Position numbers and translations under genes: made by a program. Shown here piece by piece: positions 1-21,968 of a stretch of DNA of 64,000 bases. Each line of letters starts with the position of its first letter. Positions within the stretch are counted from its first letter, which is position 1. Source of the stretch: Lachnospiraceae bacterium (GTDB taxonomy: Bacteria; Bacillota; Clostridia; Lachnospirales; Lachnospiraceae). The notes under the pieces were generated by a model that saw only the letters and a program-made list of their open reading frames with translations, was not told the DNA's origin and did not search any database. Where the stretch lies: the NCBI GenBank assembly GCA_014239155.1, contig JAAZZQ010000085.1, positions 186,001 to 250,000 on the forward strand, written 5' to 3'.

Positions 1-1070
1 ATGTCCACGCAGGAAAAGGCTGCACCATTGGGACGACTATGACAATTACAGACAAGGCGGTGCCCAATATCGTTGGCGTGGATATTGGCTGTGGCATGTA
101 TACAGTAAATCTTGGAAAAGAGGAAATTGATTTTGAGAAAATAGATGCCGCCGCACACTTTATTCCGTCAGGCATGAATGTGTGGGAGGGTAGGCAAGAA
201 CGGTTTGATTTATTACAGTTACGCTGTTATCGAAATTTAAGAGACACAAGGCGTTTAGAGCGAAGCCTTGGGACCTTGGGTGGCGGAAATCATTTTATTG
301 AGGTGGATATGGCACAGGATGGAACAAAATATCTTGTGATACATTCTGGCAGCAGAAATCTTGGTAAACAGGTAGCGGAGTTCTATCAACAGTTGGCAAT
401 TGAACTGCACACAGGCAAAGAGGAATATTTCAAAAAGAGAGATGCACTGATTATAGAATACAAGGCAGCAGGGCGTAGGAAGGAGATACAAAATGCGTTG
501 AAGGGGCTTAAATGGGAGCACCGAGATTGCCTAATACCAGAAGATTTGCGTTATTTGTATGGAACATTTCTCGAAGATTATTTGCATGATGTGGAGATTT
601 GTCAGCAGTTTGCCAGACGAAATCGTGAGAAAATGGCGGAGGTTATTTTAGAAAGAACAGGAATGACAGGAACAGAGGCGTTCCATACAATTCACAACTA
701 TATTGACACCAATGAAATGATATTGCGCAAAGGTGCAATTGCCGCCCACAAGGGCGAAAAAGTGTTAATTCCAATCAATATGCGAGATGGAAGTGTGCTT
801 GCCATCGGAAAAGGAAATCTAGAATGGAATTATTCCGCACCGCATGGGGCTGGACGACTGATGTCACGCACCAAAGCAAAAGAAAATCTGTCTATGGAGG
901 ATTATCGCAAAATGATGGAGGGTATCTACACAACCTCTGTCAACGAGGCGACACTCGACGAAGCACCAATGGCATATAAGTCCCTTGAGGATATTATTGA
1001 TGTTATTAGAGAGTCCGTGGACGTTATTGATATTATGAAACCAATCTATAATTTTAAGGCATCTGACTAG
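1..1070 (+). CDS. rtcB: RtcB family RNA ligase, 5'-truncated by window edge
   Basis: The open frame already runs at base 3, giving HAGKGCTIGTT before the first internal Met at 39, so the true start lies outside the window. RtcB joins 2',3'-cyclic phosphate or 3'-phosphate RNA ends to 5'-OH ends using GTP and Mn2+. Visible family motifs in order: GVDIGCGM (metal-binding Cys), LGGGNHFIE and VIHSGSRNLG (metal His residues), HNYID, and near the C-terminus SAPHGAGR, whose His is the residue that carries GMP in characterised RtcB. The C-terminal two thirds is therefore complete. No archease gene is visible downstream. The next gene is a small XRE regulator 59 bp away, with no clear functional link. 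Confidence 0.93.
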   Translation, partial: VHAGKGCTIGTTMTITDKAVPNIVGVDIGCGMYTVNLGKEEIDFEKIDAAAHFIPSGMNVWEGRQERFDLLQLRCYRNLRDTRRLERSLGTLGGGNHFIEVDMAQDGTKYLVIHSGSRNLGKQVAEFYQQLAIELHTGKEEYFKKRDALIIEYKAAGRRKEIQNALKGLKWEHRDCLIPEDLRYLYGTFLEDYLHDVEICQQFARRNREKMAEVILERTGMTGTEAFHTIHNYIDTNEMILRKGAIAAHKGEKVLIPINMRDGSVLAIGKGNLEWNYSAPHGAGRLMSRTKAKENLSMEDYRKMMEGIYTTSVNEATLDEAPMAYKSLEDIIDVIRESVDVIDIMKPIYNFKASD

Positions 1071-1129
1071 AGCACTGGAAAAGTAATGTTCTTTTGTTCT
1101 GGCAGAAGCCGGAACAGGAGGGACAGAGA

Positions 1130-1381
1130 ATGGTTACGATACCAACGATAGATATGGTAAAGACAGGGCAGCACATCACGGAGCTGCGGGTTCAGGCGGG
1201 GTTGTCTGTGCGGCAACTGCAGGAAATTTTCGGATTTTCCACGCCACAAGCGCTATACAAATGGCAACATGGAACCGCGCTTCCTACAATTGATAATCTT
1301 GTTGTGCTGGCAGCAGTACTTGGCGTGAAGATTGATGACATTCTGATTACTACGGATAGTTCAATACCAGTCAGTGCATAG
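1130..1381 (+). CDS. small XRE-family helix-turn-helix regulator
   Basis: An 83-residue protein that is almost entirely one Cro/CI-type helix-turn-helix: ITELRVQAGLSVRQLQEIFG, then the recognition-helix region STPQALYKWQHG and the LPTIDNLVVLAAVLGVKIDDIL tail typical of this fold. An in-frame start exists at 1094, but an AGGAGGG site at 1117-1122 sits at good spacing before the ATG at 1130, so I chose 1130. There is no effector domain. The target is unknown. It could be a stand-alone repressor or a relic of a mobile-element regulator. Confidence 0.8.
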   Translation: MVTIPTIDMVKTGQHITELRVQAGLSVRQLQEIFGFSTPQALYKWQHGTALPTIDNLVVLAAVLGVKIDDILITTDSSIPVSA

Positions 1382-1410
1382 AGAACGCTATCTATAAGTA
1401 TAGAAGTTGT

Positions 1411-1530
1411 TTATAGTAACGATTCGGGACCATAATTGAAGTTTTGCTTCGCAAAAATCATTCCTCACTTCTCAATCATGTTTTTACGGAATGCACAGTT
1501 TATGCGCATTCCTGACCCATAAAAAATAAC
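1411..1530. repeat. dispersed intergenic element, copy A
   Basis: About 120 bp of non-coding DNA beginning TATAGTAAC and ending AAAAATAAC. Read on the reverse strand it aligns with 27796-27914 (reverse strand) and 60944-61076 (reverse strand): an outer GTTACT/TTT block, a GGAATGCG...GCATTCCGT inverted pair, AAAACAT, a central hairpin (here TTTTGCTTCGCAAAA) and a closing GTTACT block. It lies between the XRE gene and the bile salt hydrolase gene. Function unknown. Confidence 0.7.
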
Positions 1531-1662
1531 TAGAGAATTTGTAATACACAAAAAGATATTACTCCATGATTGATATTATTGCGAAAAGTAAGTATAATAG
1601 GAATCGATAGAACGTATTATAAAAGTCAACGCAAGTATCAATTGGTGAATGGAGAGATTTGT

Positions 1663-2640
1663 ATGTGCACAGCAGCTACTTATAAGACAGCAGATTTTTA
1701 TTTTGGACGTACACTGGATAATGATTTTTCCTATGGAGATGAGGTGACAATTACCCCCAGAAATTATCCGTTTCATTTTCGGAAGCTGGGAGATATTGAC
1801 ACACATTATGCAATGATTGGCATGGCGTATATAGCACAGGATTATCCGCTATATTATGATGCAGTCAATGAAAAAGGACTGGCGGTGGCAGGACTCAATT
1901 TTGTGGGGAACGCTGTTTACAGAGAGTGTGTAAATGATAAAGACAATCTTGCGCAGTTTGAGTTCATTCCGTGGATTCTTAGTCAGTGTGCTACAGTGAA
2001 ACAAACGCGCGTTTTACTAAAAAGAGTGAATATATGCAACATAAAGTTTGCTGAAAATCTACCTGCGGCGCAGTTGCACTGGATTATTGCAGACAGTGAG
2101 GAGGCAATCACAGTGGAGACGGTCGCAAATGGGATAAAAGTTTATGACAATCCGGTGGGCGTGCTGACGAATAATCCACCGTTTGACGAGCAATTGTTTG
2201 CGCTCAACAATTATATGCATCTATCAGCAAAACCACCCGTCAACACCTTTGCGCCTGGATTGAAATTGCAGCAGTATAGCCGTGGAATGGGTGCTATCGG
2301 ACTGCCCGGGGATTTGTCGTCGCAGTCTAGGTTTGTGCGGGCAGCCTTTACAAGAATGAATGCAGTCAGTGGCAAAGGAGAATTAGAAAGTGTCAGCCAG
2401 TTCTTTCATATTCTAAGTGCAGTCGACCAGCAACGAGGATGCTGTGTTTTAGAGAATGGAGAATATGAGGTGACGCTCTACACATCTTGTTGCAATGTCA
2501 CAAAAGGAATCTATTATTATACAACGTATGATAATCATCAGATTACAGCAGTTGATATGCACAGAGAAAATGTGGACGGCAAAATATTAGTGCGATATCC
2601 GACAGTGAAAGAAGAGCAGATTTGGATACAGAATGCTTAG
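1663..2640 (+). CDS. bsh: choloylglycine hydrolase / bile salt hydrolase family protein
   Basis: A 325-residue Ntn-hydrolase of the choloylglycine hydrolase family, which cleaves the amide bond of glycine- or taurine-conjugated bile salts, or of penicillin V in some members. The start at 1663 gives Met-Cys, so that removal of Met exposes the catalytic Cys2. A GGAGAG site precedes it at 1651, whereas the in-frame start at 1570 would bury the Cys. Other family marks are FGRTLDNDF (Arg and Asp near residues 16-19), GLAVAGLNF, the VLTNNPPFDEQ loop and GLPGDLSSQSRFVRAAF. Length matches the family. No signal peptide, so it is intracellular. Monocistronic, with element A upstream. Bile salt versus penicillin V substrate cannot be settled by eye. 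Confidence 0.9.
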   Translation: MCTAATYKTADFYFGRTLDNDFSYGDEVTITPRNYPFHFRKLGDIDTHYAMIGMAYIAQDYPLYYDAVNEKGLAVAGLNFVGNAVYRECVNDKDNLAQFEFIPWILSQCATVKQTRVLLKRVNICNIKFAENLPAAQLHWIIADSEEAITVETVANGIKVYDNPVGVLTNNPPFDEQLFALNNYMHLSAKPPVNTFAPGLKLQQYSRGMGAIGLPGDLSSQSRFVRAAFTRMNAVSGKGELESVSQFFHILSAVDQQRGCCVLENGEYEVTLYTSCCNVTKGIYYYTTYDNHQITAVDMHRENVDGKILVRYPTVKEEQIWIQNA

Positions 2641-2718
2641 AAACTGTGGGAAAATAACTGTTTAGAAAGACTTGTGAAAGTACAAAAACGCTGTACAGAT
2701 ATGGAAGGAGAAAGAGGG

Positions 2719-3150
2719 TTGTCAATTAAAGAGTCGAACAATGTGGAAGGTACATCAGATAAGCTTGTAGGAATGAAAGTATTAGTGGTCGAGGACAATG
2801 TACTGAATTTGGAGATTGTATCAGAAGTTCTGAGCGAGCGCGGATTAATTGTCACTACAGCAGAGAATGGACAGGTTGCTGTCGAACTGTTTCAGAACAA
2901 TTCACCGGGAACATTTGATGTGATTTTGATGGATATGCATATGCCGATTATGGGTGGTGTGGAAGCCACAAAAATAATTCGTGCTATGAAGCATGCCGAT
3001 GCGCAAAAAATACCAATATTGGCGCTAACTGCAAATGATTTTGAAGAGGATATTCGCAGGACGCGGGAAGCAGGCATGAATGATCATTTGACGAAACCAT
3101 TTGATATGGAGAAAATATTTGAGGCGCTCGTGGCGCACACAGGAAAGTGA
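2719..3150 (+). CDS. stand-alone receiver-domain response regulator
   Basis: A single CheY-like receiver domain (MKVLVVEDN, phospho-acceptor Asp in VILMDMHMP, Thr in ILALTAND, Lys in HLTKPFD) and no output domain. The 5' end is uncertain: GTG 2674, ATG 2701, TTG 2719 and ATG 2773 share the frame. TTG 2719 has the best ribosome site (AAGGAG at 2705-2710), so I used it. The residues before the domain resemble the linker ahead of receiver domains at the end of hybrid histidine kinases. The gene may therefore have come from such a kinase. No kinase is adjacent, and a partner could lie elsewhere. Confidence 0.75.
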   Translation: MSIKESNNVEGTSDKLVGMKVLVVEDNVLNLEIVSEVLSERGLIVTTAENGQVAVELFQNNSPGTFDVILMDMHMPIMGGVEATKIIRAMKHADAQKIPILALTANDFEEDIRRTREAGMNDHLTKPFDMEKIFEALVAHTGK

Positions 3151-3184
3151 GAGGGGAATATCGTTTTCCCTTCTCATTTTTTTA
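3147..3184 (+). terminator. intrinsic terminator after response regulator
   Basis: GAGAGGGGAA pairs imperfectly with TTCCCTTCTC around a short loop and is followed by a run of seven T. It overlaps the response regulator stop codon and separates it from the SPFH operon. Confidence 0.65.
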
Positions 3185-3300
3185 TGGTAATTATTAAAAG
3201 TAAAATATTCATATTGACAAAACAATTTCAAAGTGATATTATTATGATATCAAAAGAAATCACAATTAGATTAACAAGTGTCCAGATAAGGAGGTACTTT

Positions 3301-4305
3301 ATGGAAGAGAGAGTTTTATCAAAGAAGAAAAATGGTATGGCTGTGTTATGTGGCATACTGCTGTTGTATGCGGTGTCGATAGCAGGGATTTATTTCGGGG
3401 CAGTAAATGCGTATACTCTTGTTATTTTTGCCAGCATTTTGGTGATTGTTGTAGCGACAATACTCCTGCCAGGATTGAAAGTTCTAAAGCCGCAGGAAGC
3501 GTTGGTACTTACATTGTTTGGCAAATATATAGGTACATTAAAAGAAGATGGTTTTTATTTTGTAAATCCGTTTTGTTCTACCGTGAACCCAGCAGCACGT
3601 ACGAAACTAAATCAGAGTGGAGATGTGAATGACTCTGCCACAATGTTGGCGATTGCGAACAAGGCCACAGGCACGAACATGGAAGCCTACAACAACAAAA
3701 TCTCACTAAAAATTATGACCCTAAATAACAACAAGCAGAAGATTAATGACTGTCTTGGCAATCCAGTAGAGATTGGAATCGCTGTTACATGGAAGGTTGT
3801 GGACACAGCAAAAGCGGTGTTTAATGTGGACAATTACAAAGAGTTTTTGTCGTTGCAGTGTGACAGTGCACTTCGCGATATTGTGCGCATCTATCCTTAC
3901 GATGTGGCGCCAAATGTCGATACAACAGGTGATGGGCTATCAGACGAGGGAAGTTTACGCGGTTCGAGTGAGATTGTTGCGGCCAGAATCCGCGGGGAGA
4001 TACAGAAAAGAGTCGAGGAGGCTGGCATTGAAGTTGTTGAGGCACGTATTACATATCTTGCATACGCTCCGGAAATTGCTGTGGTAATGTTACAGAGGCA
4101 GCAGGCATCAGCGATTATCGACGCGCGGAAAATGATTGTGGATGGTGCGGTTGGTATGGTCGAGATGGCATTGGAGCGCCTGAGTGAAAATCATATAGTG
4201 GAGCTTGATGAGGAGCGTAAAGCTGCAATGGTTTCCAACTTATTAGTTGTACTCTGTGGAAATCATGACGCACAGCCGATTGTAAATTCAGGCAGTTTAT
4301 ATTAA
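3301..4305 (+). CDS. SPFH/Band 7 domain membrane protein
   Basis: 334 residues with start ATG 3301 behind TAAGGAGG at 3287. Two hydrophobic segments lie near residues 12-55, followed by the VLKPQEALVLTLFGKYIGTLKEDGFYFVNPF signature region of SPFH (stomatin/prohibitin/flotillin) proteins. An SPFH core (GIAVTWKVVDTAKAVFNVDNYKEFL) and an alpha-helical tail with VEEAGIEVVEARITYLAYAPEIA follow. Such proteins form membrane-bound oligomeric rings or microdomain scaffolds. It heads a tight operon with an Arc-like protein, a small membrane protein and a YbjQ protein. The exact role is unknown. Confidence 0.85.
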   Translation: MEERVLSKKKNGMAVLCGILLLYAVSIAGIYFGAVNAYTLVIFASILVIVVATILLPGLKVLKPQEALVLTLFGKYIGTLKEDGFYFVNPFCSTVNPAARTKLNQSGDVNDSATMLAIANKATGTNMEAYNNKISLKIMTLNNNKQKINDCLGNPVEIGIAVTWKVVDTAKAVFNVDNYKEFLSLQCDSALRDIVRIYPYDVAPNVDTTGDGLSDEGSLRGSSEIVAARIRGEIQKRVEEAGIEVVEARITYLAYAPEIAVVMLQRQQASAIIDARKMIVDGAVGMVEMALERLSENHIVELDEERKAAMVSNLLVVLCGNHDAQPIVNSGSLY

Positions 4306-4391
4306 ATATTTAAATAGTCTTACGGAGTCTATTAAGATGATTTAAGAAAACGCCTAAGCAGCGTTTTACATTGACAAAAAGGAATGATGTT

Positions 4392-4592
4392 ATGGGTGAT
4401 TCTGGCAAGAAACAAGTTCCGCTTAGGCTTTCAGCAAAGCTGTATGATGCGATTGCCGCGTGGGCGGAGGACGATTTTCGATCGGTCAACGGACAAATTG
4501 AATACCTGCTGACAGAGTGCGTCCGACAGCGCAAAAAAAATGGAAAATATGTCTCCGACGAGATTGACAAACCGCTGGAAATTAATATTTAG
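4392..4592 (+). CDS. Arc-like ribbon-helix-helix small protein
   Basis: 66 residues. ATG 4392 follows AAGGA at 8-nt spacing. An upstream TTG at 4371 in the same frame lacks a ribosome site. The segment [34 protein letters not shown] fits the short beta strand plus two helices of Arc/MetJ-type DNA-binding proteins. The stretch [12 protein letters not shown] is typical of Arc homologues. It sits between the SPFH gene and a small membrane protein gene and is probably co-transcribed. It may regulate the operon, but that is inference. Confidence 0.7.
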
Positions 4593-4612
4593 GAAAAGGA
4601 GACGTGATATCG

Positions 4613-4840
4613 ATGAAACACTGGCAGAAGATGGTTGCGCCAATTGTGATTGCTTTCCTTATGATTGTCTATTATATTGGAGCAGCAGTATTTTTTATGG
4701 CAGTACCCAGCATTCCCGCAGGAATTAAAATTCTAATGATGGTGGTACCATTAATATTGGCGGCAGTGATGCTTGGTGTATTAATAAGCAGAATAAAAGA
4801 AATTAAAGGAGGAGAAGAAGATGATCTTAGTCAATACTGA
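4613..4840 (+). CDS. small two-helix membrane protein
   Basis: 75 residues with two strongly hydrophobic segments (about residues 9-30 and 38-60) and a charged tail RIKEIKGGEEDD. ATG 4613 is preferred because GGAG at 4598-4601 is 11 nt away, while GTG 4604 is too close to it. The 3' end overlaps the next gene by 20 nt, and that overlap carries the neighbour's ribosome site, which suggests translational coupling. No known family is recognised. Confidence 0.7.
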   Translation: MKHWQKMVAPIVIAFLMIVYYIGAAVFFMAVPSIPAGIKILMMVVPLILAAVMLGVLISRIKEIKGGEEDDLSQY

Positions 4841-13563: not shown

Positions 13564-14748
13564 ATGGAGAAACTTTTATTTACTTCAGAGTCTGTAACAG
13601 AAGGACATCCAGACAAAGTGTGTGATGCCATCTCAGATGCTATTTTAGATGCGTTGATGGAGCAAGACCCAATGAGTCGTGTTGCTTGTGAGACGGCTAC
13701 CTGTACAGGTTTTGTGCTGGTGACAGGAGAGATTACGACCAAGGCATATGTCGATATCCCAAAGATTGTGCGGGATACAGTTAAAGAGATTGGGTACAAC
13801 AAGTCTGAGTATGGTTTTGATGGAAATACTTGTGCTGTGTTTACTGCGATTGATGAACAGTCTGGTGACATTGCAATGGGTGTGGACAAGGCATTTGAAG
13901 CAAAAAATAGTATGAGTGATGCTGAGATTGAAGCGATTGGTGCTGGGGATCAGGGAATGATGTTTGGATATGCCACAAATGAGACAGAGGAGTATATGCC
14001 CTATCCCATTTCGCTTGCACACAAACTTGCGTTGCAGCTTACCAAGGTGCGCAAAGATGGAACACTTCAATATTTAAGACCAGATGGAAAGACACAGGTT
14101 TCTGTGGAGTATGATGAAAATGGTAAGCCTAAGCGGCTTGAGGCAGTTGTTCTCTCCACACAGCATGATGAAGATGTAACACAAGAACAGATTCATGAGG
14201 ATATTAAAAAACATGTTTTTGATGTTATTTTGCCAAAAGAATTAATTGATGCAGACACAAAGTTTTATATCAATCCGACCGGTCGTTTTGTAATAGGCGG
14301 ACCGCACGGTGATGCAGGACTTACAGGGCGCAAGATTATTGTAGATACATATGGTGGATATGCGCGTCATGGCGGTGGTGCTTTCTCCGGAAAGGATTGC
14401 ACAAAGGTGGATAGAAGTGGTGCATATGCTGCGCGGTATGTGGCAAAGAATCTTGTTGCAGCAGGGCTTGCAGATAAGTGTGAAATACAACTTTCCTATG
14501 CGATTGGTGTTGCGCAGCCGACTTCTATCAATATAGACACTTTTGGAACAGGCAAACTAGATAGTGAACGGCTGGTGGAAATTGTGCGCGAGCATTTTGA
14601 CTTACGGCCGGCAGGTATTATCAAAATGCTTGATCTTAGACGGCCAATTTACAAGCAGACAGCGGCTTATGGGCATTTTGGACGCAATGACCTCGATTTA
14701 CCTTGGGAGAAACTGGACAAGGTTGATGTGCTAAAGAAATACTTATAA
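13564..14748 (+). CDS. metK: S-adenosylmethionine synthetase
   Basis: 394 residues. ATG 13564 follows AGGAGG, while the in-frame extension to 13459 runs back into the leader hairpin and is not coding. The enzyme makes SAM from methionine and ATP. Visible signatures: [20 protein letters not shown] (ATP site), [12 protein letters not shown], the P-loop-like [21 protein letters not shown], and [10 protein letters not shown] (phosphate-binding). The C-terminus AAYGHFGR is present, so the gene is complete. It is controlled by the SAM-I riboswitch upstream. Confidence 0.97.
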
Positions 14749-14897
14749 TTATGGCATAGTCTCAAAAAGAAAACTCAATGTTGCTTCCCGGTATGGTACA
14801 ATTAGTATTAATTGTTTTACTGTATCGGGATTTTTGCATATTTTGGAAAAACAGTATGATAGCAGTCTGTGCGGGAAGACATTATTTTTACAATTCC

Positions 14898-14933
14898 TAA
14901 TTTTGCATGCGCGATACATGTAATGCAAAATTA
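14898..14933. promoter_or_regulatory. inverted repeat upstream of the HTH regulator
   Basis: TAATTTTGCAT (14898-14908) and ATGCAAAATTA (14923-14933) form a perfect 11-bp inverted repeat with a 14-bp spacer, 65 bp before the regulator start. It could be an operator for autoregulation or a transcript hairpin. There is no T tract behind it, so a terminator is less likely. Confidence 0.5.
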
Positions 14934-14997
14934 CGAAAGGATAAAGCCGCTGTAAATTTGTACCACAAATATTGGGATATAGCGGAACGTTAAGATT

Positions 14998-16863
14998 ATG
15001 AATAAGAGTGCAAAATATTATGAACTGCAGGCGCTTGATCTGTGGGATTTTCCTGCGCTCATTAAAAAGGCAAGGGAAATACAAGGAATCACACTGGAAG
15101 GTTTATGTAAGGATATCTGTTCGTCAAGTTTGATGGGCAGAATTGAAAAAGGAGAACGCCATGCCAATAAAGAACTTCGTGACCGGATTTTAGCAAGGTT
15201 AGGAGTGTGTTCTGACGGTTATGAGAATTTTCTGTTCTATGATGATTATCTGGTGTGGAAACAAAAGCAGAGGATTGTAAACGCCATTGAGAAGTCAGAT
15301 TTTGAAGAGGCAGAAAAGTTGTTGGAAACCTATGATAAAGAGAGTGAGGAGGATAAACTTGGCAGACAGTTTTGTATGGTAATGCGAGCGCAGATTATGC
15401 AGAAACGTCATAAGGATAAAATGCAGATTGCGCGTATTTATGAGGAAGCTGTCAAGTTAACTGTTTCAGATATTGATAGTGGGTTGATAAAGAACCTTTG
15501 TCTTTCAGTGCAAGAGCTTGATATGATATTGGAATACGAGCGATATTGCCACCCAGACAGATTGGCTTCGCGGTGTGAGGAGATTCTGGCATATATCAGC
15601 AGCGAAGTGTTTGATACATACAGCTATGTAAAAATTTATCCGAAAGTTATTTACTATTTGTATATTAGTACAGCAGATAAAGATAGGGACTGGATTCGGT
15701 TGTTGCGCCTTAGCAGCGCAGGAATTGAGCAGTTGCGTACAACAGGAAGAATGTATTATTTCTGGGAGCTTTTGAAAATTAAGAAAGAAGGACTCACAAG
15801 ACTTCTAAGTAATATGGGAAAGGATACAGACAGCAGGAAAAGAGAGGCACTTCAAAATGTGATTGGTACGACAGATGCATGGATGGAAGCACTTGATTTT
15901 GTGCATAATCTGTGTGGAACGCATCAAAAAATGGAGACGTCTTGTTATCTATATCAGCAGAAGGAGGCTTATTGTATTAGTGATGTTATTCGCAGGCGGC
16001 GTGAGATGTTAGGGCTTACCAAGAAAGCGCTCTGCAAAGATATCTGTTCTGAAAAGACCATTGGGCGTTTAGAGGCAAAGAAAACAAAACCACAGATTGA
16101 TATTGTAAGGCAGTTGTTTGAACGGTTAAATTTATCCGGAGAGTATCAGAGATGGCAGATTGTAACAAAAGATGTAAAGGCATTTCCGATTGTAGATAAG
16201 ATAGGGATTTGTGCTAATAATCGTGATTTTGAAGAATTGGAGCGATTGTTAGTAGAGTTACAACAATACATATCTACAAAGAATTTAACGAATAGGCAAT
16301 TCAAAGAAAGAATTGAATTAAATTTGAATTTGCGACAAGGTAAAATGACAAATGAGGAGGCAAGACAATGTTTGATAAAGATATTAGAATATACATTGCC
16401 ATATAAAACCATAACAGAAACAGGTGCAAAGTATTTAACTAATATTGAGATACAGTGCGTGCTTGATATCGCTATTAATGTCGGAAAATCAAGTATGAAT
16501 AACAACTTTATTTCACTATGCGAATTGTGTAAACAAATGGAAGAGGATGAAGGAATACCTGAACATATTGCAGTGTGGGAAATGATAATGACAATTATTG
16601 CTAGTATATATGGAAATATGAGAGAATATGATAAATCAGATAAACTTGCCTTAAAGATTATGACAGAATGTATTCAATGTTATAGAATGAACACAATAGA
16701 AACCAATTTATATTGTATTTCTTGGAATAATCAACAACGTAGTAAGAAAAATATTCCTCTTCAAGAGGGATATCAAGAAGAAACATATTTAAGGAAATGT
16801 ATTGAATGGTGTAAAATAAACAAAAATGTATTTGCTGAAAAAGTGATAAGTCATAAATTATAG
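14998..16863 (+). CDS. double HTH-helical repeat regulator (RRNPP-like)
   Basis: 621 residues built from two homologous halves. Each half starts with an XRE-type helix-turn-helix containing the same LCKDICS string (residues about 20-70 and 327-380: LCKDICSSSLMGRIEKGE and LCKDICSEKTIGRLEAKK). Each is followed by about 230 residues of helices with TPR-like spacing (for example FEEAEKLLETY, FEELERLLVEL). An HTH plus TPR layout is the hallmark of peptide-sensing RRNPP regulators, but those normally have one HTH. From about 16,250 on the DNA becomes more AT-rich. Its 3' end is partly duplicated downstream. It faces a convergent gene for a small exported peptide and lies 1 kb from a radical SAM gene. 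Family assignment rests on architecture only. Confidence 0.8.
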   Translation: MNKSAKYYELQALDLWDFPALIKKAREIQGITLEGLCKDICSSSLMGRIEKGERHANKELRDRILARLGVCSDGYENFLFYDDYLVWKQKQRIVNAIEKSDFEEAEKLLETYDKESEEDKLGRQFCMVMRAQIMQKRHKDKMQIARIYEEAVKLTVSDIDSGLIKNLCLSVQELDMILEYERYCHPDRLASRCEEILAYISSEVFDTYSYVKIYPKVIYYLYISTADKDRDWIRLLRLSSAGIEQLRTTGRMYYFWELLKIKKEGLTRLLSNMGKDTDSRKREALQNVIGTTDAWMEALDFVHNLCGTHQKMETSCYLYQQKEAYCISDVIRRRREMLGLTKKALCKDICSEKTIGRLEAKKTKPQIDIVRQLFERLNLSGEYQRWQIVTKDVKAFPIVDKIGICANNRDFEELERLLVELQQYISTKNLTNRQFKERIELNLNLRQGKMTNEEARQCLIKILEYTLPYKTITETGAKYLTNIEIQCVLDIAINVGKSSMNNNFISLCELCKQMEEDEGIPEHIAVWEMIMTIIASIYGNMREYDKSDKLALKIMTECIQCYRMNTIETNLYCISWNNQQRSKKNIPLQEGYQEETYLRKCIEWCKINKNVFAEKVISHKL

Positions 16864-17023
16864 AAGCCAATTTAATTATATCATTTGGAATAATCAGAAA
16901 CGTAATAAAAAAATATCCCTCTTAGAAAGGGATATCAAGAAGAAATATATTTAAGAAAATGTATTAAATGGCATAAAATAAACAAAAATACATTTGTCGA
17001 AAAAGTTATAAGTAATAAATTAT
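16860..17023 (+). pseudogene. decayed tandem copy of the regulator's 3' end
   Basis: The 164 bp from 16696, coding the last residues of the regulator (from ETNLY to the stop), recur immediately as 16860-17023 with substitutions. A one-base loss in the A-rich stretch after CGTAATAA breaks the frame. Matching blocks include TAGAA(A/G)CCAATTTA, TGGAATAATCA, GGGATATCAAGAAGAAA and AAAATAAACAAAAAT. It is a tandem duplication that no longer codes. Confidence 0.8.
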
Positions 17024-17038
17024 TTTAAATTAATGAAA

Positions 17039-17182
17039 TCAGGTATGTAGATCTGTATTAGGATCTAAATCATGCATAGGCGTTACACCATAATCATCAA
17101 TCTGTGGAAGTCCGCCAAAGAAATCTGCGTTCAAGGTAAATACAAGTGCTGCTAACAACACAACATTCATTAATTTTTTCAT
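17039..17182 (-). CDS. 47-residue exported peptide, possible signal or RiPP precursor
   Basis: Reverse-strand ORF starting at ATG 17182, six bases after AAGAAGG. A longer in-frame extension to 17383 lacks a ribosome site. The peptide starts MKKLMNVVLLAALVFTL, a short signal-type segment, and continues with a mature tail of about 27-30 residues containing ADFFGGLPQIDDYGVTP and a His/Asp-rich end. It has no Cys, so it is not AgrD- or lantibiotic-like. The layout resembles Phr/PapR pro-peptides that act on RRNPP regulators, and it is convergent with such a regulator. It could instead be the substrate of the radical SAM enzyme at 17884. Both are inference. Confidence 0.6.
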   Translation of the reverse strand: MKKLMNVVLLAALVFTLNADFFGGLPQIDDYGVTPMHDLDPNTDLHT

Positions 17183-17223
17183 AGTGAACCTTCTTTCTAA
17201 AAACTTTATCATTTGCAAAAGCA

Positions 17224-17249
17224 TTCCGCTGACTGTTACATCAGCGGAA
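17224..17249. promoter_or_regulatory. inverted repeat before the small peptide gene
   Basis: TTCCGCTGA and TCAGCGGAA are a perfect 9-bp inverted repeat with an 8-bp spacer, 42 bp upstream of the peptide ATG on the reverse strand. Possible operator or leader hairpin. Confidence 0.45.
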
Positions 17250-17594
17250 CCGTTTAGGGAATTGGCTCTTCCTGTTTCCGTTGTGATAGGATGCAATGCA
17301 TAACAATATTGATTGAGAAGTAAGAAAGCTTTTTGGGAAAATACAGCTTCCGATAAACCATACAAAATTTGAAGATGTATCAATATCTATTTAGGATTAG
17401 AAATGAATTCATAATCGACATAGAATATTAGAACTTAGCATAATACTTTAATATAAAGTGATGTTAAAATACATCAAATATTATAATATCATACACATCT
17501 GTATCAAAGTAAGTATGGAAATACCTCATGCATTAAGAAACTAAGGAAGAGCTGAATGCTTCGGTATCTTTATTTAACTCCATGCACAGTCAAA

Positions 17595-17655
17595 AATCAA
17601 TGCCCAGAGTTGTCCGAATTGTGTCCTGTTTTTTGGACAACTCTGGGCATTGATT
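17595..17655. repeat. 61-bp perfect inverted repeat
   Basis: Arms 17595-17615 and 17635-17655 are perfectly complementary over 21 bp (AATCAATGCCCAGAGTTGTCC and its complement would pair fully) with a 19-nt loop. It lies in the 700-bp gap between the peptide and the radical SAM gene. No U-run follows on the plus side. It may be a transcript stem, a terminator or a minimal mobile-element footprint. Confidence 0.7.
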
Positions 17656-17764
17656 GATAAAATAAGAAATGGTACACTAAAAGTTACTAATAAGAGACTG
17701 GCTATGAAAGTGTCTTTAAAAAAATTCAATAAGTTATTGTAGTATACTTAATATTATGTTTCAA

Positions 17765-17802
17765 TTCTAATCGAATAGAACGCATTATTTGTATGCTATA
17801 AT
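17765..17802 (+). promoter_or_regulatory. putative promoter and operator of radical SAM gene
   Basis: An extended -10 (TGCTATAAT, TATAAT at 17797-17802) lies 81 bp before the radical SAM start. Just upstream TTCTAatcgaaTAGAA (17765-17779) is a small palindrome that could bind a regulator. No clear -35 box is seen, which fits an activated promoter. Confidence 0.45.
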
Positions 17803-17883
17803 ATTCTAAAATATAAAGATTCTAAAAATCGAAAGAAAAATAGCGAACACACAAACATAAGATGAGAGGAGGGGAGACTTATT

Positions 17884-19155
17884 TTGAAAAAATCAAGATA
17901 TTTTATTTCGACTCAGATAGATGATTTTGTTTTATATTATAATCTGGTCAATGATACCTTGTTAAAACTTCCAGCAGATAAAAATGAAGGCTGCATCAAA
18001 TGTCTGGAAAATCCAAATGATAGTACTTCTATATATTGGAGTAAACTGTACTCAGATAAATTTATTATTGATGACAATTTTGATGAGTTAAAGGAAACCC
18101 AGAGCAGGCACTGGAAGACGGTAAATAGTGGAGATCAACTGGATTTGACAGTAATCTGTACATTTGACTGTAATAGTGATTGTATATATTGCTATCAGAA
18201 AAATCTTACATTTCAATGTTTGGAGATGAGCGAAACAGATTTTGATGGGCTGTGCACATTTCTAAGTAAGGCTTCCCAGCAATATATTCATATTAATTGG
18301 TATGGTGGCGAGCCACTATTGGCAAAGGAGAAAATACTGCGTTTATGTGCAGAGCTAGACAAGGACAAAAAACATATTTACAGTTATTCTGTCTCGACAA
18401 ATGGTTCCATATATGATGAGAAATTTTTCCGCATGATGGAGCGCTATGGAATGACCAATGTGACTGTTTCGGTTGTCGGTATAGGCGAGGAGCACAATCA
18501 GTTGCGCCCTTCTGACATCTATACTTCAGACAGCGTGATGCGCAATATTATTTTGATGACGCGGCATACCAATGTCATAGTTAATTTGAATCTTTGCAAA
18601 AGCAATATAGAGCAAATCTCAGAAGTTTTTGAAGCGCTTTCTGGATATCGTTATTCCTCCCTTTCCTTTACATTTAGTCGTATTGTAAGCTATACTCACA
18701 AGCCTTGTGAGGAGATTGTATTAGATGTGGACACTTATATGAAACATGTGATTGCGCTGTCAAATTGGGCGTTGGATCATCGGTTCCGAATAAGTGATAT
18801 GAGCTGTTTTCAAAATTTTGGTGTGTTTTGCGGGGTGTATGCAAAGCATAATTATGTGGTTGGACCGGGGCTGTATGTATATCAGTGTGATCGCTTTTAC
18901 AATCCCAAAGACGCCTTTGCGCAGATTGTGAATGGTACTTTGACATACAATCAATATAATGCTGTAAGTAATGAGAAAGAATATTACATTGATCCATATC
19001 AGATAGAGGAGTGCAGAAATTGCAAAATTTTGCCATACTGCAATGGAGGATGTGATTATCTACGGAAAATTGGAAAGGACGCTTGCCCTCCTGAGAAAAA
19101 TTATTTAGAAGATTATTTGAAATTGTATTATCGCATATTTTATGAAGAACAGTGA
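17884..19155 (+). CDS. radical SAM/SPASM peptide-modifying enzyme
   Basis: 423 residues from TTG 17884 with GAGGAGGGG upstream. The N-terminal 85 residues (RYFISTQIDDFVLYYNLVNDTLLKLP) look like the leader-peptide-handling region of RiPP maturases. The radical SAM cluster is C96-x3-C100-x2-C103 (CNSDCIYCY), with an extra Cys92, followed by the WYGGEPLL motif. The C-terminal SPASM region (CRNCKILPYCNGGCDYLRKIGKDACPP) would bind auxiliary Fe-S clusters. Such enzymes cross-link or modify ribosomal peptides or mature other proteins. No precursor lies directly upstream on the same strand. The nearest candidate is the 47-residue peptide. No transporter is adjacent. Confidence 0.88.
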   Translation: MKKSRYFISTQIDDFVLYYNLVNDTLLKLPADKNEGCIKCLENPNDSTSIYWSKLYSDKFIIDDNFDELKETQSRHWKTVNSGDQLDLTVICTFDCNSDCIYCYQKNLTFQCLEMSETDFDGLCTFLSKASQQYIHINWYGGEPLLAKEKILRLCAELDKDKKHIYSYSVSTNGSIYDEKFFRMMERYGMTNVTVSVVGIGEEHNQLRPSDIYTSDSVMRNIILMTRHTNVIVNLNLCKSNIEQISEVFEALSGYRYSSLSFTFSRIVSYTHKPCEEIVLDVDTYMKHVIALSNWALDHRFRISDMSCFQNFGVFCGVYAKHNYVVGPGLYVYQCDRFYNPKDAFAQIVNGTLTYNQYNAVSNEKEYYIDPYQIEECRNCKILPYCNGGCDYLRKIGKDACPPEKNYLEDYLKLYYRIFYEEQ

Positions 19156-19331
19156 TTTTGTGATGTGTAAAGGGTCTTGATAGCAAGAAAAATAAAACTG
19201 TTATAAAAAGTATGCAAAAATGATGCAAATTTGTTTTATGCTAATGATATAATGGTTATAATGGGGTTAGGAAATAACATGTGCAAGTTTCGCATAAAGT
19301 CATTCCTTATTGGCAGAAAACAGAGGTGCAT

Positions 19332-20144
19332 ATGGAGCAAAATAATAAAAAATCAATGAAATTATCAGGCAAAATGAAATGGATTTGTGCAATGGCAATC
19401 TTTTCGTTGGCAGCGGCGTTTTTTACAGCAGGCACAATGATTTTGCGCAAAGAGCTTAAAATTAATCCAATGTTTGCCAGAAAATATGAGATTCACGGAG
19501 TAGATGTCTCTCACTATCAGGGGACAATTGACTGGGGAATTTTGTCCCAACAGGGGCTTGACTTTGCGGTGATTAAAGCGACAGAAGGAAGCACACATAT
19601 TGATGACCGTTTTGATGAGAACTGGCAGGCAGCAGAACAGACACATCTGTATCTGGGTGCCTACCATTTTTTCAGTTTTGATAGTGAAGGGGATAGGCAG
19701 GCGGCTTCTTATATTGAGACGGTGGGAAGTCTGGATGGAAAGCTGGCTCCCGTTGTTGACGTGGAATATTACGGAACAAAGCGGAGTAATCCTCCAGAGC
19801 GCGCAGAGGTGATTAAAAAGCTTAAGGATTTGCTGGATGCATTGGAGAATCATTATCAGATAAAGCCTATTATCTATACGACTTTTACTGTTTATAATGA
19901 GTATATTAAGGGGGAATTTGAAGATTATCCACTGTGGGTTCGTAGTATTTACTGTCCGCCGGCGGTCTTATTTGGAAATAAATGGAGTTTTTGGCAATAT
20001 ATGGATACTGCTATGTTAGATGGATATACAGGGGATCAGAAGTACATTGATGTCAATGTTTTTAATGGAACCCGCAAAGACCTTGAGGAGCTGGTAATAC
20101 AAAAGACAGAATGCATGAATGTCAACAGTGATGTGGAGCAATGA
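19332..20144 (+). CDS. membrane-anchored GH25 lysozyme
   Basis: 270 residues. ATG 19332 is preferred, and a GTG at 19281 in the same frame gives an unlikely charged extension. A signal-anchor helix (about residues 17-36) is followed by a complete GH25 muramidase domain. The first catalytic Asp lies in HGVDVSHYQGTIDW and the DxE motif in APVVDVEYYG, with WSFWQYMD near the end. It should cleave the MurNAc-GlcNAc bond of peptidoglycan outside the membrane. It lies downstream of the radical SAM gene on the same strand after a 176-bp gap, so co-transcription is unclear. Confidence 0.9.
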   Translation: MEQNNKKSMKLSGKMKWICAMAIFSLAAAFFTAGTMILRKELKINPMFARKYEIHGVDVSHYQGTIDWGILSQQGLDFAVIKATEGSTHIDDRFDENWQAAEQTHLYLGAYHFFSFDSEGDRQAASYIETVGSLDGKLAPVVDVEYYGTKRSNPPERAEVIKKLKDLLDALENHYQIKPIIYTTFTVYNEYIKGEFEDYPLWVRSIYCPPAVLFGNKWSFWQYMDTAMLDGYTGDQKYIDVNVFNGTRKDLEELVIQKTECMNVNSDVEQ

Positions 20145-20294
20145 CTATAATACAAAATAAGATTTACTTATAGATATAGGTGCTCGAAGTTTAGACGAAA
20201 AGGTGGGATTATTTGTTTTTCCTAGAGCATTTTTAAACACGCCCTAAAATCATGAGAAAGAAACAATATATTTTACAGTAATTTCCGGAGGCTA

Positions 20295-21968
20295 TTGCAT
20301 GTTTGTATTAAAAGCAACAAAAAAGACGCATCAAAAGATTCTGTAATCTTTAAAAAATCGAAAACACTAGATACAAAGAGTACATTTCACAACGAACATT
20401 TTTATCCTATCTCCTCTGAAGTGACTCAAGGTTACTATGCTGTTTCACCTGCTCCTAAAACTTTGGGTTCAAATAATTGTTCAGTAGTGCAACGTTATTT
20501 GATTGTGGGAAACGACGATATAACTAAAAAGTATTATGAAGATAAAAATAACAACGCTGGCACAGTTGAACAGAAATTGGATTGGTTTGTCACCAATGTT
20601 GCACAACAAATGTTAGTACAGATTGAACAAAAAAAAGTAAGTGAAACAGACCCTGATACGATGCAATACCTTACCTATTTGCAGGGCTCTATCATAAGTG
20701 ATCCAGGATATCTTCTTCGAAAACAGCTTAAAAAATGGATTCGAGACAATGTGGGCGATAAATCGAACTCCCGCAACCAAACTTTTGGGCAAAAATTTCA
20801 GCCAAGAGTATACTATAATTATTATGATTTGGCTGTCGCTCTTATTGGATGGGTTGATGCTAAAGCAAATCGACGCCGAGAGAAAAAGATTGCACATGAA
20901 ATTATGAAAGATAAAGAAGTTGAGTCTTATTTAAATTTAGTATTTTTGCGTATAAGAGAATTTATCTATAGCCACCCAAAGCATAAGGAAATTAAAACTG
21001 AAATCCAAAATCCAAATCGGAAAATTATCGCATATCATGTTGGCAATCCAGAATGTAAGCCCAATAAGTGGGCGATTTATAAATCATATTTTGATCATAG
21101 CATTAACAGGGGAACACATCTTCCTAAGCATTGGGATGTTTTGAAGCATCCTGATAAGTATGATATCCGACAAAAAACAGGAGTTCTTCATGATCTAATG
21201 CACTATTTTTTGGAAAAATTTGGCGATGCATTTTTATTTAATGGGCTTCCCCCATTTCAAGCAACAACCCTTCGTGGGCGAGAGAATTATAACCGTCCGG
21301 AAAATTCTCAGATCCGAGGGGATAGGATATTGGCGAAAAAAGGAGGAACTCCATTAAATCTTGCTACACAGGTAAAATATAGCAGTGAAGAGCAACATGA
21401 TAGCTATCAATATGCGCGTCGAAAACATCTTCCTATGTATGGAAGACATTCGTACTCAGCAGCTAGAATGATGGGACTCGCAAAACAGACAGGAGCGACA
21501 CCACAAGAGATTAGTGCTGTAAGCTGGGCGATTATGGCTTATTGGCGGATTCATTATGACCACACCAGCATTCCCTATCATACCACCCACGAAATTATGG
21601 ATTTCACTCCTGCATTTGGATTAGATTATGATCCACAAAACCATCTTGCAGGTTTTGATATCTTGCGGAAGAAAAAATTTTTAAATTTTTTGATTTCAAA
21701 TGTACATTCGGATCCACAGATACTTCAGGCATTAATGTCTTATCATGATAACGATTTAGATAGAGCTAAATTTCTTCTTGCTCACTCAAAAGTGTGGACT
21801 ATACCTAAGATCATGCATTACTTAAGAACTACTAAACTGCCATTTGACCAGTTCCGGCAACTTCCAATAAATAAGTTGTGCAAATTCTTTAATTACAATA
21901 AGGAAAATAAACAACTGTTTCAAATGTTACCATTGAGGCGGCAAAACTATATCAATCAAAAACGGTAG
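20295..21968 (+). CDS. toxin- or cargo-like protein of unknown function
   Basis: About 557 residues, no signal peptide or membrane segment. A short disordered N-terminus ends in NCSVVQRYLIVG. VQR strings of this kind are frequent in DUF4157-type and contractile-injection cargo proteins, which makes such a role possible but unproven. The rest is His/Tyr-rich, with HDLMHYFLEKFGD, YGRHSYSAARMMG and WAIMAYWRIHYDHTSIPYHTTHEIMD. The annotated frame begins at TTG 20295, only 3 nt after GGAGG, whereas ATG 20299, at ideal spacing, lies in another frame. Adding one A to the A6 run at 20319-20324 would join ATG 20299 (MFVLKATKKDASKD) to the long frame. Confidence 0.65.
   Translation: MHVCIKSNKKDASKDSVIFKKSKTLDTKSTFHNEHFYPISSEVTQGYYAVSPAPKTLGSNNCSVVQRYLIVGNDDITKKYYEDKNNNAGTVEQKLDWFVTNVAQQMLVQIEQKKVSETDPDTMQYLTYLQGSIISDPGYLLRKQLKKWIRDNVGDKSNSRNQTFGQKFQPRVYYNYYDLAVALIGWVDAKANRRREKKIAHEIMKDKEVESYLNLVFLRIREFIYSHPKHKEIKTEIQNPNRKIIAYHVGNPECKPNKWAIYKSYFDHSINRGTHLPKHWDVLKHPDKYDIRQKTGVLHDLMHYFLEKFGDAFLFNGLPPFQATTLRGRENYNRPENSQIRGDRILAKKGGTPLNLATQVKYSSEEQHDSYQYARRKHLPMYGRHSYSAARMMGLAKQTGATPQEISAVSWAIMAYWRIHYDHTSIPYHTTHEIMDFTPAFGLDYDPQNHLAGFDILRKKKFLNFLISNVHSDPQILQALMSYHDNDLDRAKFLLAHSKVWTIPKIMHYLRTTKLPFDQFRQLPINKLCKFFNYNKENKQLFQMLPLRRQNYINQKR

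What the first reader, a model, noticed from the sequence alone, without database searches (positions are those of the whole stretch)
14998..19155. Candidate peptide-signalling / RiPP locus: double HTH-TPR regulator, exported 47-residue peptide and radical SAM/SPASM enzyme
Seen: a 621-residue regulator with two HTH plus helical-repeat halves, a convergent small ORF (17039-17182, minus strand) with a signal-type N-terminus and good ribosome site, and a SPASM enzyme with RiPP-maturase features. Known: RRNPP regulators (Rgg, PlcR, Rap families) sense exported short peptides, and Rgg/SHP pairs in streptococci control radical-SAM RiPP clusters. Inference: the peptide is the signal for the regulator, or the substrate of the enzyme, or both. 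A duplicated-HTH sensor with a convergent peptide gene is not a layout I know to be described.
Basis: partly seen in the sequence, partly recalled or inferred. Interest (0 to 1): 0.8.

Follow-up and report, generated by a model that had tools for sequence, protein, structure and literature searches.

The report
Double-headed peptide receptor and partner peptide
Some bacteria of a family common in the gut carry several copies of a paired gene set, a double-length sensor protein next to a small, probably exported peptide with its own DNA control site, which looks like a new, duplicated version of a known bacterial cell-to-cell signalling system.

Summary
The 621-aa regulator (14998-16863) is two fused HTH-TPR units; both halves relate to PlcR/Rgg/PrgX/ComR by profile and fold. 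The 47-aa peptide gene (17039-17182, minus) is real: 52 of 67 homologous regulators, and 17 of 26 in further genomes, have a signal-like ORF convergent on their 3' end, against 1-3 and 0-2 for the other three placements. The peptide tail covaries with the C-terminal TPR half of the regulator (class I partial r 0.80, permutation p 0.0002), not with its N-terminal half or the radical SAM enzyme: most likely the receptor's ligand, not a demonstrated enzyme substrate. Best reading: a duplicated RRNPP-type signalling cassette controlling its own peptide and the radical SAM gene. Convergent layouts are known (Rgg group III; TprA2/PhrA2 on opposite strands); the fused double receptor did not appear in the listings of nine paper searches.

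The parts
14998..16863 (+). double HTH-TPR receptor/regulator, 621 aa
15037..15237 (+). N-terminal HTH (residues ~14-80)
   Evidence: profile match to Rgg2/PrgX/ComR; 0.88 mean identity in class I
15973..16173 (+). C-terminal HTH (residues ~326-392)
   Evidence: HTH_3 E 1.6e-9 for the protein, best stretch 331-383
16174..16860 (+). C-terminal TPR half, inferred peptide sensor (residues ~393-621)
   Evidence: covaries with the peptide tail; PlcR-like fold
16864..17023 (.). degenerate 162-nt tandem copy of the regulator's 3' end (recombination or duplication scar)
17039..17182 (-). 47-aa pro-peptide with signal-like N-terminus, convergent to the regulator
17042..17089 (-). codons of the last 16 residues (GVTPMHDLDPNTDLHT), inferred to contain the mature signal
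17595..17655 (.). palindrome, inferred operator: two 24-nt arms (96% complementary), 13 nt between
17572..17600 (-). predicted promoter towards the peptide gene: -35 TTGATT (17600-17595), 17-bp spacer, -10 TTAAAT (17577-17572)
17650..17678 (+). predicted promoter towards the radical SAM gene: -35 TTGATT, 17-bp spacer, -10 TACACT preceded by TGG
17884..19155 (+). radical SAM/SPASM enzyme, 423 aa, likely target gene of the system

Best explanation
A self-contained peptide-signalling cassette of RRNPP type with a duplicated, single-chain receptor. The 47-aa precursor is exported by its N-terminal signal sequence and trimmed to a fragment of its acidic tail (GVTPMHDLDPNTDLHT); the fragment is re-imported by an oligopeptide permease and binds the C-terminal TPR half of the 621-aa receptor. 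The receptor, whose chain already holds two HTH domains, sits (probably as a dimer, hence four HTHs) on the palindrome whose ends carry the -35 boxes of two divergent promoters, and so switches the peptide gene (autoinduction) and the radical SAM gene together. Shown by computation: gene conservation, homology of both halves to PlcR/Rgg, conservation and geometry of the palindrome, tail/C-half covariation. Inferred: export, processing, import, binding, dimer state, and the sign of regulation (activation likelier than repression).
For: Convergent signal-like ORF 52/67 and 17/26, at most 3/67 and 2/26 in other placements. Profile of 28 regulators hits PlcR at 6.6e-14 over the C-half and Rgg2/PrgX/ComR at the N-terminal HTH; RNPP_C in 5 of 28. 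Model pLDDT 89, PlcR ranked first. N-half alone: PlcR, ComR, Rgg2, NrpR and PrgX fill 17 of the first 18 Foldseek rows, 2 of them at E <= 0.001. N- and C-halves align with each other (99.8%, E 9e-30) and form separate clades; two-gene split versions sort one gene to each. Inverted repeat of score >=14 upstream of 30 of 46 peptide genes, 0 of 230 shuffles. Class I half-site in 14 of 15 genus genomes with the regulator, 0 of 23 without. -10 boxes at one fixed offset on both sides in 13 class I loci. Tail/C-TPR partial r 0.80, p 0.0002; the signal part of the same peptide follows the N-half instead (partial 0.72; with C-TPR 0.20).
Against: No experiment. 15 of 67 and 9 of 26 regulators had no peptide by the criterion; a looser scan of the 15 showed a plausible one in 1. 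Two split pairs (L111, L261) had none either. Regulator upstream regions also hold inverted repeats of score >=14 in 8 of 45. In class II the tail covaries with the N-half at least as well (partial 0.55 against 0.35), and no convincing fixed -10 was found on the divergent side. In the window another minus-strand promoter-like match (17507-17480, 11 of 12) lies nearer the peptide gene. The convergent layout places tail codons beside C-TPR codons, so one recombination tract could produce part of the covariation. The signal sequence was judged by hydropathy, not by SignalP. The narrower profile A3 hit solved RRNPP structures only weakly (best 0.0033).
Confidence: 0.8

Rival explanations
1. The peptide is a RiPP precursor: the radical SAM enzyme modifies it, and the modified peptide is the product or the signal.
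For: Peptide and enzyme genes diverge from one palindrome; in G000 the only class I half-sites are the two arms of this palindrome; no other small ORF near the enzyme is shared by more than three of eight loci, and those shared read through the palindrome or overlap other genes.
Against: The tail does not covary with the enzyme (partial r -0.22) while the enzyme follows the N-half (r 0.97). G033 and G035 keep regulator, peptide and palindrome without the enzyme. A paralogous cassette (L107) stands by a PapB-family maturase that has a separate Cys-rich small ORF beside it.
Confidence: 0.2
2. The palindrome is not an operator but an RNA hairpin (terminator or attenuator) or a mobile palindromic repeat.
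For: Paired changes in both arms occur (by eye); a second copy lies near the first in G022, G033 and G035.
Against: Fixed -35/-10 geometry at the outer ends; the exact class I pattern occurs at one place in each of the 8 of 40 genomes that have it, control pattern 0, unlike a repeat family; no T-tract by eye; no Rfam match at 14000-20500; different palindromes go with different regulator groups.
Confidence: 0.08
3. Toxin-antitoxin-like or antisense pair: the small hydrophobic ORF is a toxin, or the convergent overlap acts by antisense RNA, without export or signalling.
For: Convergent, often overlapping by 4 nt; weak match of the C-terminal HTH to an antitoxin model (couple_hipB 25.6 bits, cut-off 71.65).
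Against: Full TPR halves related to PlcR; tail covaries with the TPR half; purifying selection on peptide codons; in the window 175 nt separate the two genes.
Confidence: 0.05
4. The tail/C-half covariation is only linkage: convergent neighbours exchanged together by recombination, with no ligand relation.
For: In L174 identity to the window regulator is 0.73-0.98 per 60-residue block before residue 360, 0.80 at 360-420 and 0.48-0.63 after; the window keeps a duplicated 3' end of the regulator.
Against: The correlation starts at residue ~370 and is highest (0.74) at 430-470, far from the stop; class III shows it too (partial 0.44, p 0.0002). Exchange of this kind would itself keep matched pairs together.
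Confidence: 0.15

Closest known systems
PlcR/PapR (RRNPP family)
   Same: HTH plus TPR receptor with a small exported pro-peptide encoded next to it (recall); first in fold and profile matches
   Different: PlcR is one HTH-TPR unit (293-residue sequence); here two units in one chain, a convergent peptide gene and a long two-sided palindrome
Rgg/SHP group III in streptococci
   Same: SHP gene convergent with and overlapping the end of rgg; Rgg/SHP systems also regulate radical SAM RiPP operons (passages of PMC13361665)
   Different: Single-unit receptor and hydrophobic SHP; here acidic/polar tails, a duplicated receptor, and no separate precursor found beside the radical SAM gene
TprA2/PhrA2 in pneumococcus
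   Same: Regulator on the strand opposite a small peptide gene, next to genes for a predicted lanthionine peptide (passages of PMC5436883)
   Different: Single-unit regulator (recall)
Qsr/Qsp systems of Clostridium acetobutylicum
   Same: Eight receptor/pro-peptide pairs in one clostridial genome, precursors of 39-50 aa with conserved C-terminal residues (passages of PMC7376267)
   Different: One HTH plus TPRs; conserved Leu/Pro/Trp at the tail instead of the G(I/V/A)(S/T/A)(P/T)xx(D/Y) motif common here

Membership tests
RRNPP peptide receptors | HTH followed by TPR-type helical repeats related to Rap/Rgg/NprR/PlcR/PrgX | tested here: met
   Both halves:
RRNPP peptide receptors | One HTH-TPR unit, 250-500 aa (limit used by RRNPP_Detector, passages of PMC10075063) | tested here: not met
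   621 aa, two units; split two-gene forms exist
RRNPP peptide receptors | Adjacent small pro-peptide gene with basic, then hydrophobic N-terminus | tested here: met
   52/67 and 17/26; by hydropathy, SignalP not available
RRNPP peptide receptors | Mature peptide is a C-terminal fragment bound by the TPR domain | tested here: inconclusive
   Covariation of tail with C-TPR; no binding data
RRNPP peptide receptors | Re-import through an oligopeptide permease | tested here: inconclusive
   Three SBP_bac_5 proteins over the cut-off in the genome; generic, also in 11 of 14 control genomes
RRNPP peptide receptors | Export and proteolytic maturation of the peptide | not testable with these tools
   needs culture and mass spectrometry
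Radical SAM/SPASM RiPP maturases | CX3CX2C cluster motif and SPASM domain | tested here: met
   PF04055 50.6 bits, TIGR04085 44 bits over cut-off 27; motif Cys invariant in 10 homologues
Radical SAM/SPASM RiPP maturases | Score above the cut-off of a named maturase family | tested here: not met
   best TIGR04334, 138.8 bits, cut-off 600
Radical SAM/SPASM RiPP maturases | Identified precursor peptide | tested here: inconclusive
   only the signal-like peptide is shared nearby; no covariation of its tail with the enzyme
Rgg/SHP group III | Convergent, overlapping short hydrophobic peptide gene | tested here: inconclusive
   Convergent overlap in many homologues; the tail is polar and in the window the genes are 175 nt apart

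The most novel reading that the evidence does not exclude
A new architecture of peptide receptor: an old tandem duplication made a single-chain pseudo-dimer in which only the C-terminal half reads the signal while the N-terminal half is a fixed partner, and whose dimer lays four HTHs on a ~55-bp two-sided operator. The convergent layout joins the codons of the signal tail to those of the sensing half, making one exchangeable block of under 1 kb by which receptor and ligand specificity can be swapped together.
Probability: 0.45. Interest if true: 0.82.

Novelty: new variant of a known kind. Interest (0 to 1): 0.72.

Why it matters
It would give a family that is abundant in the mammalian gut (recall) a testable peptide language: predicted signal tails, matched receptors, and exact operator sequences to build reporters with. 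It also offers a natural experiment on how a signalling receptor duplicates, divides labour between its halves, and changes specificity together with its ligand.

Tried and rejected

Rows dropped or assumed: L043 (same regulator and peptide as L038) and L041 (same peptide as L095) were left out of the covariation test; L117 and G037 (contig ends) show no peptide; in class II L067, L070 and L073 and in class III L112 were not used (13, 14 and 13 loci tested). In one search the enzyme of L044 and of L114 lies on another contig of the same genome and was assigned to that cassette by me. One search used only the 28 loci whose palindrome fitted my class patterns, L038 and L043 both included. In one search the window's own palindrome lay partly beyond the 450-nt reach and counted as a miss. 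One search reached 500 nt, 800 nt. Counts include a few near-identical pairs; related genomes are not independent events. I searched papers nine times and saw listings (titles, starts of abstracts, 12-25 rows each); six papers were seen as passages only.
Full report
1. Observation. Pfam finds HTH_3 with two stretches in the regulator, best at 331-383. The enzyme matches Radical_SAM (50.6 bits) and the SPASM domain TIGR04085 (44 bits, cut-off 27), but no named maturase family shown reaches its cut-off (best by E-value 138.8 bits of 600).

2. Conservation of the pair. The peptide occurs once in the own genome. The regulator has four further full or broken homologues there, besides the 3' remnant in the window and one weak partial match. 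Of 144 related genomes searched 25 have homologues at E <= 1e-10: the own one, 18 more of the genus and 6 others. From the stretches that I fetched around these places I got 89 regulator ORFs or pieces. With one fixed criterion (30-90 aa, RBS-like motif, basic then hydrophobic N-terminus), 52 of 67 regulators of >= 480 aa with >= 350 nt of 3' flank had such an ORF convergent on their 3' end; the same criterion gave 2 (same strand, downstream), 1 (divergent, upstream) and 3 (same strand, upstream). Stops often overlap by 4 nt. Of the 15 misses a looser scan shows a plausible peptide in 1 (L109), and it shows one in two regulators that had been left out for short flanks (L099, L103). In 299 genomes drawn from the same family (298 genera; Lachnospiraceae by the record titles), 26 had homologues at E <= 1e-40; in genomes not used before, 17 of 26 testable regulators had the convergent ORF, against 2, 0 and 1 (reach 500 nt). 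Many tails share a motif G(I/V/A)(S/T/A)(P/T)xx(D/Y) that begins 13-16 residues from the end (by eye). Of 23 pairs with >= 0.70 identity, 16 have dN/dS 0.09-0.20, 4 have 0.22-0.34, and three pairs whose tails differ (L038/L044, L048/L114, L083/L085) 0.54-0.56; medians over all usable pairs 0.40, 0.31 and 0.42 (41, 13 and 49 pairs).

4. The operator. Aligning the peptide-enzyme gap of nine loci revealed a near-invariant inverted repeat: in the window arms 17595-17618 and 17632-17655, 96% complementary, 13 nt apart. Other groups have other palindromes at the corresponding place, which I call class I (CAATGCCCAGAG...), II (ACAAGGGACAGA...) and III (ATGACGTT...). Inverted repeats of score >= 14 lie upstream of 30 of 46 distinct peptide genes, in 0 of 230 shuffles, and in 8 of 45 regulator upstream regions. 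The exact patterns occur in 8, 6 and 7 of 40 genomes, control patterns in none. A class I half-site with up to 3 mismatches occurs in 14 of 38 genus genomes: 14 of the 15 that carry a class I regulator (>= 62% identity; the 15th, G037, ends inside the gene) and none of the 23 others; the control pattern has 7 hits in 5 genomes. In 13 class I loci a -10 box stands at one offset from the palindrome's outer end on both sides (mean 5.0 and 4.2 of 6 matches; mean over offsets 2.1 and 2.0), with an extended TG in 12 of 13 on the enzyme side; class II shows it on the peptide side only (6 loci, mean 4.3), class III at offset 22 on the divergent side (9 loci, mean 5.3) and weakly, at another offset, on the other. 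G003, G033 and G035 keep the palindrome and the rightward promoter; G033 and G035 lack the enzyme on unbroken sequence, while G003 has 289 N to the right of the palindrome.

5. Who reads the tail. In 13 class I pairs, identity of the last 16 residues correlates with the C-TPR half (r 0.82) and, with the N-TPR half held constant, 0.80 (p 0.0002, the floor of 5,000 permutations); with the N-half given C it is -0.01. Class III: 0.44 (p 0.0002). Class II: 0.35 (p 0.0086), where the N-half given C does better, 0.55. Leave-one-out in class I stays at 0.76-0.82; along the chain the partial correlation lies between -0.27 and 0.22 for windows starting before residue 350 and at 0.46-0.74 from 370; the signal part of the same peptide follows the N-half (0.72), not C-TPR (0.20). 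The C-TPR half is the fastest-evolving part of class I regulators (0.50-0.56 mean identity against 0.72 and 0.88). Because the genes converge, tail and C-TPR codons are neighbours, so joint replacement could contribute; the window carries a possible scar, a 162-nt copy of the regulator's 3' end.

6. The enzyme. Orthologues (62-100%) occur in 11 of 144 genomes, all 11 among the 15 with the class I regulator, adjacent to it in 9. A 47% homologue in G023 (L132) has no regulator or class I-III palindrome on its 14-kb stretch. Enzyme identity follows the regulator's N-half (r 0.97) and not the tail (partial -0.22; 10 loci). So it belongs to the cassette as a probable controlled gene, and its substrate is open. 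A paralogous cassette in G022 (L107) faces a PapB-family maturase (378 bits, cut-off 340) with its own Cys-rich small ORF and an ABC transporter.

7. Literature. The listings of nine searches showed no description of a duplicated RRNPP receptor or of RRNPP systems in Lachnospiraceae; the terms RRNPP and Lachnospiraceae stand together in 0 papers; the library lacks most subscription papers. RRNPP_Detector limits receptors to 250-500 aa (passages of PMC10075063), which would exclude this family's fused form. Term searches in the main texts of PMC10075063, PMC12700828 and PMC9765709 gave 0 for 'two HTH' and 'Lachnospir'. Convergent or opposite-strand layouts are known.

8. Verdict. A duplicated, RRNPP-like peptide-signalling cassette; new variant of a known kind. 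It is predicted to work like an RRNPP system and is related to that family, but has two receptor units in one chain. Record titles of matching contigs say Lachnospiraceae, e.g. A4 and IMSAGC_011.

Noticed in passing
L107 (G022:C22:26000-38000), 800-4823: Paralogous receptor/peptide pair facing a PapB-family ranthipeptide maturase, a Cys-rich small ORF (2698-2868, -) and an ABC transporter: a likely signal-controlled RiPP cluster.
   Followed up: partly
L078, L084, L088, L081, L077 (class III loci): These cassettes face a ~602-605-aa ORF followed by a 727-aa ORF; in L078 the first has a von Willebrand A domain and the second no Pfam match.
   Followed up: partly
L086 (G013:C175) and L090 (G003:C20): Regulator and palindrome stand directly next to each other with no peptide gene found: possible receptors that lost their own signal.
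   Followed up: no
L050 and L051, right of the first palindrome: A second, less perfect class I palindrome and a hairpin-like stretch (in L050 CATCAAGCCAT...ATGGCTTGATG) stand where other genomes have the radical SAM gene.
   Followed up: no
L165 (G018:C202) 4711-4745; G007:C22:102486: Class II-like sites lie upstream of the regulator gene itself, hinting at autoregulation.
   Followed up: no
L166 and L167: Class III palindromes without a recognisable regulator stand upstream of similar 255-aa ORFs (MFQNIYPVFEPKRVLKKEML...): possible distant targets.
   Followed up: partly
window 20295-21968: 557-aa ORF with no Pfam match.
   Followed up: no
L042 (G000:C8:44000-59000): A broken regulator paralogue in the own genome (two open pieces); a similar copy in G016:C27 is open.
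   Followed up: no
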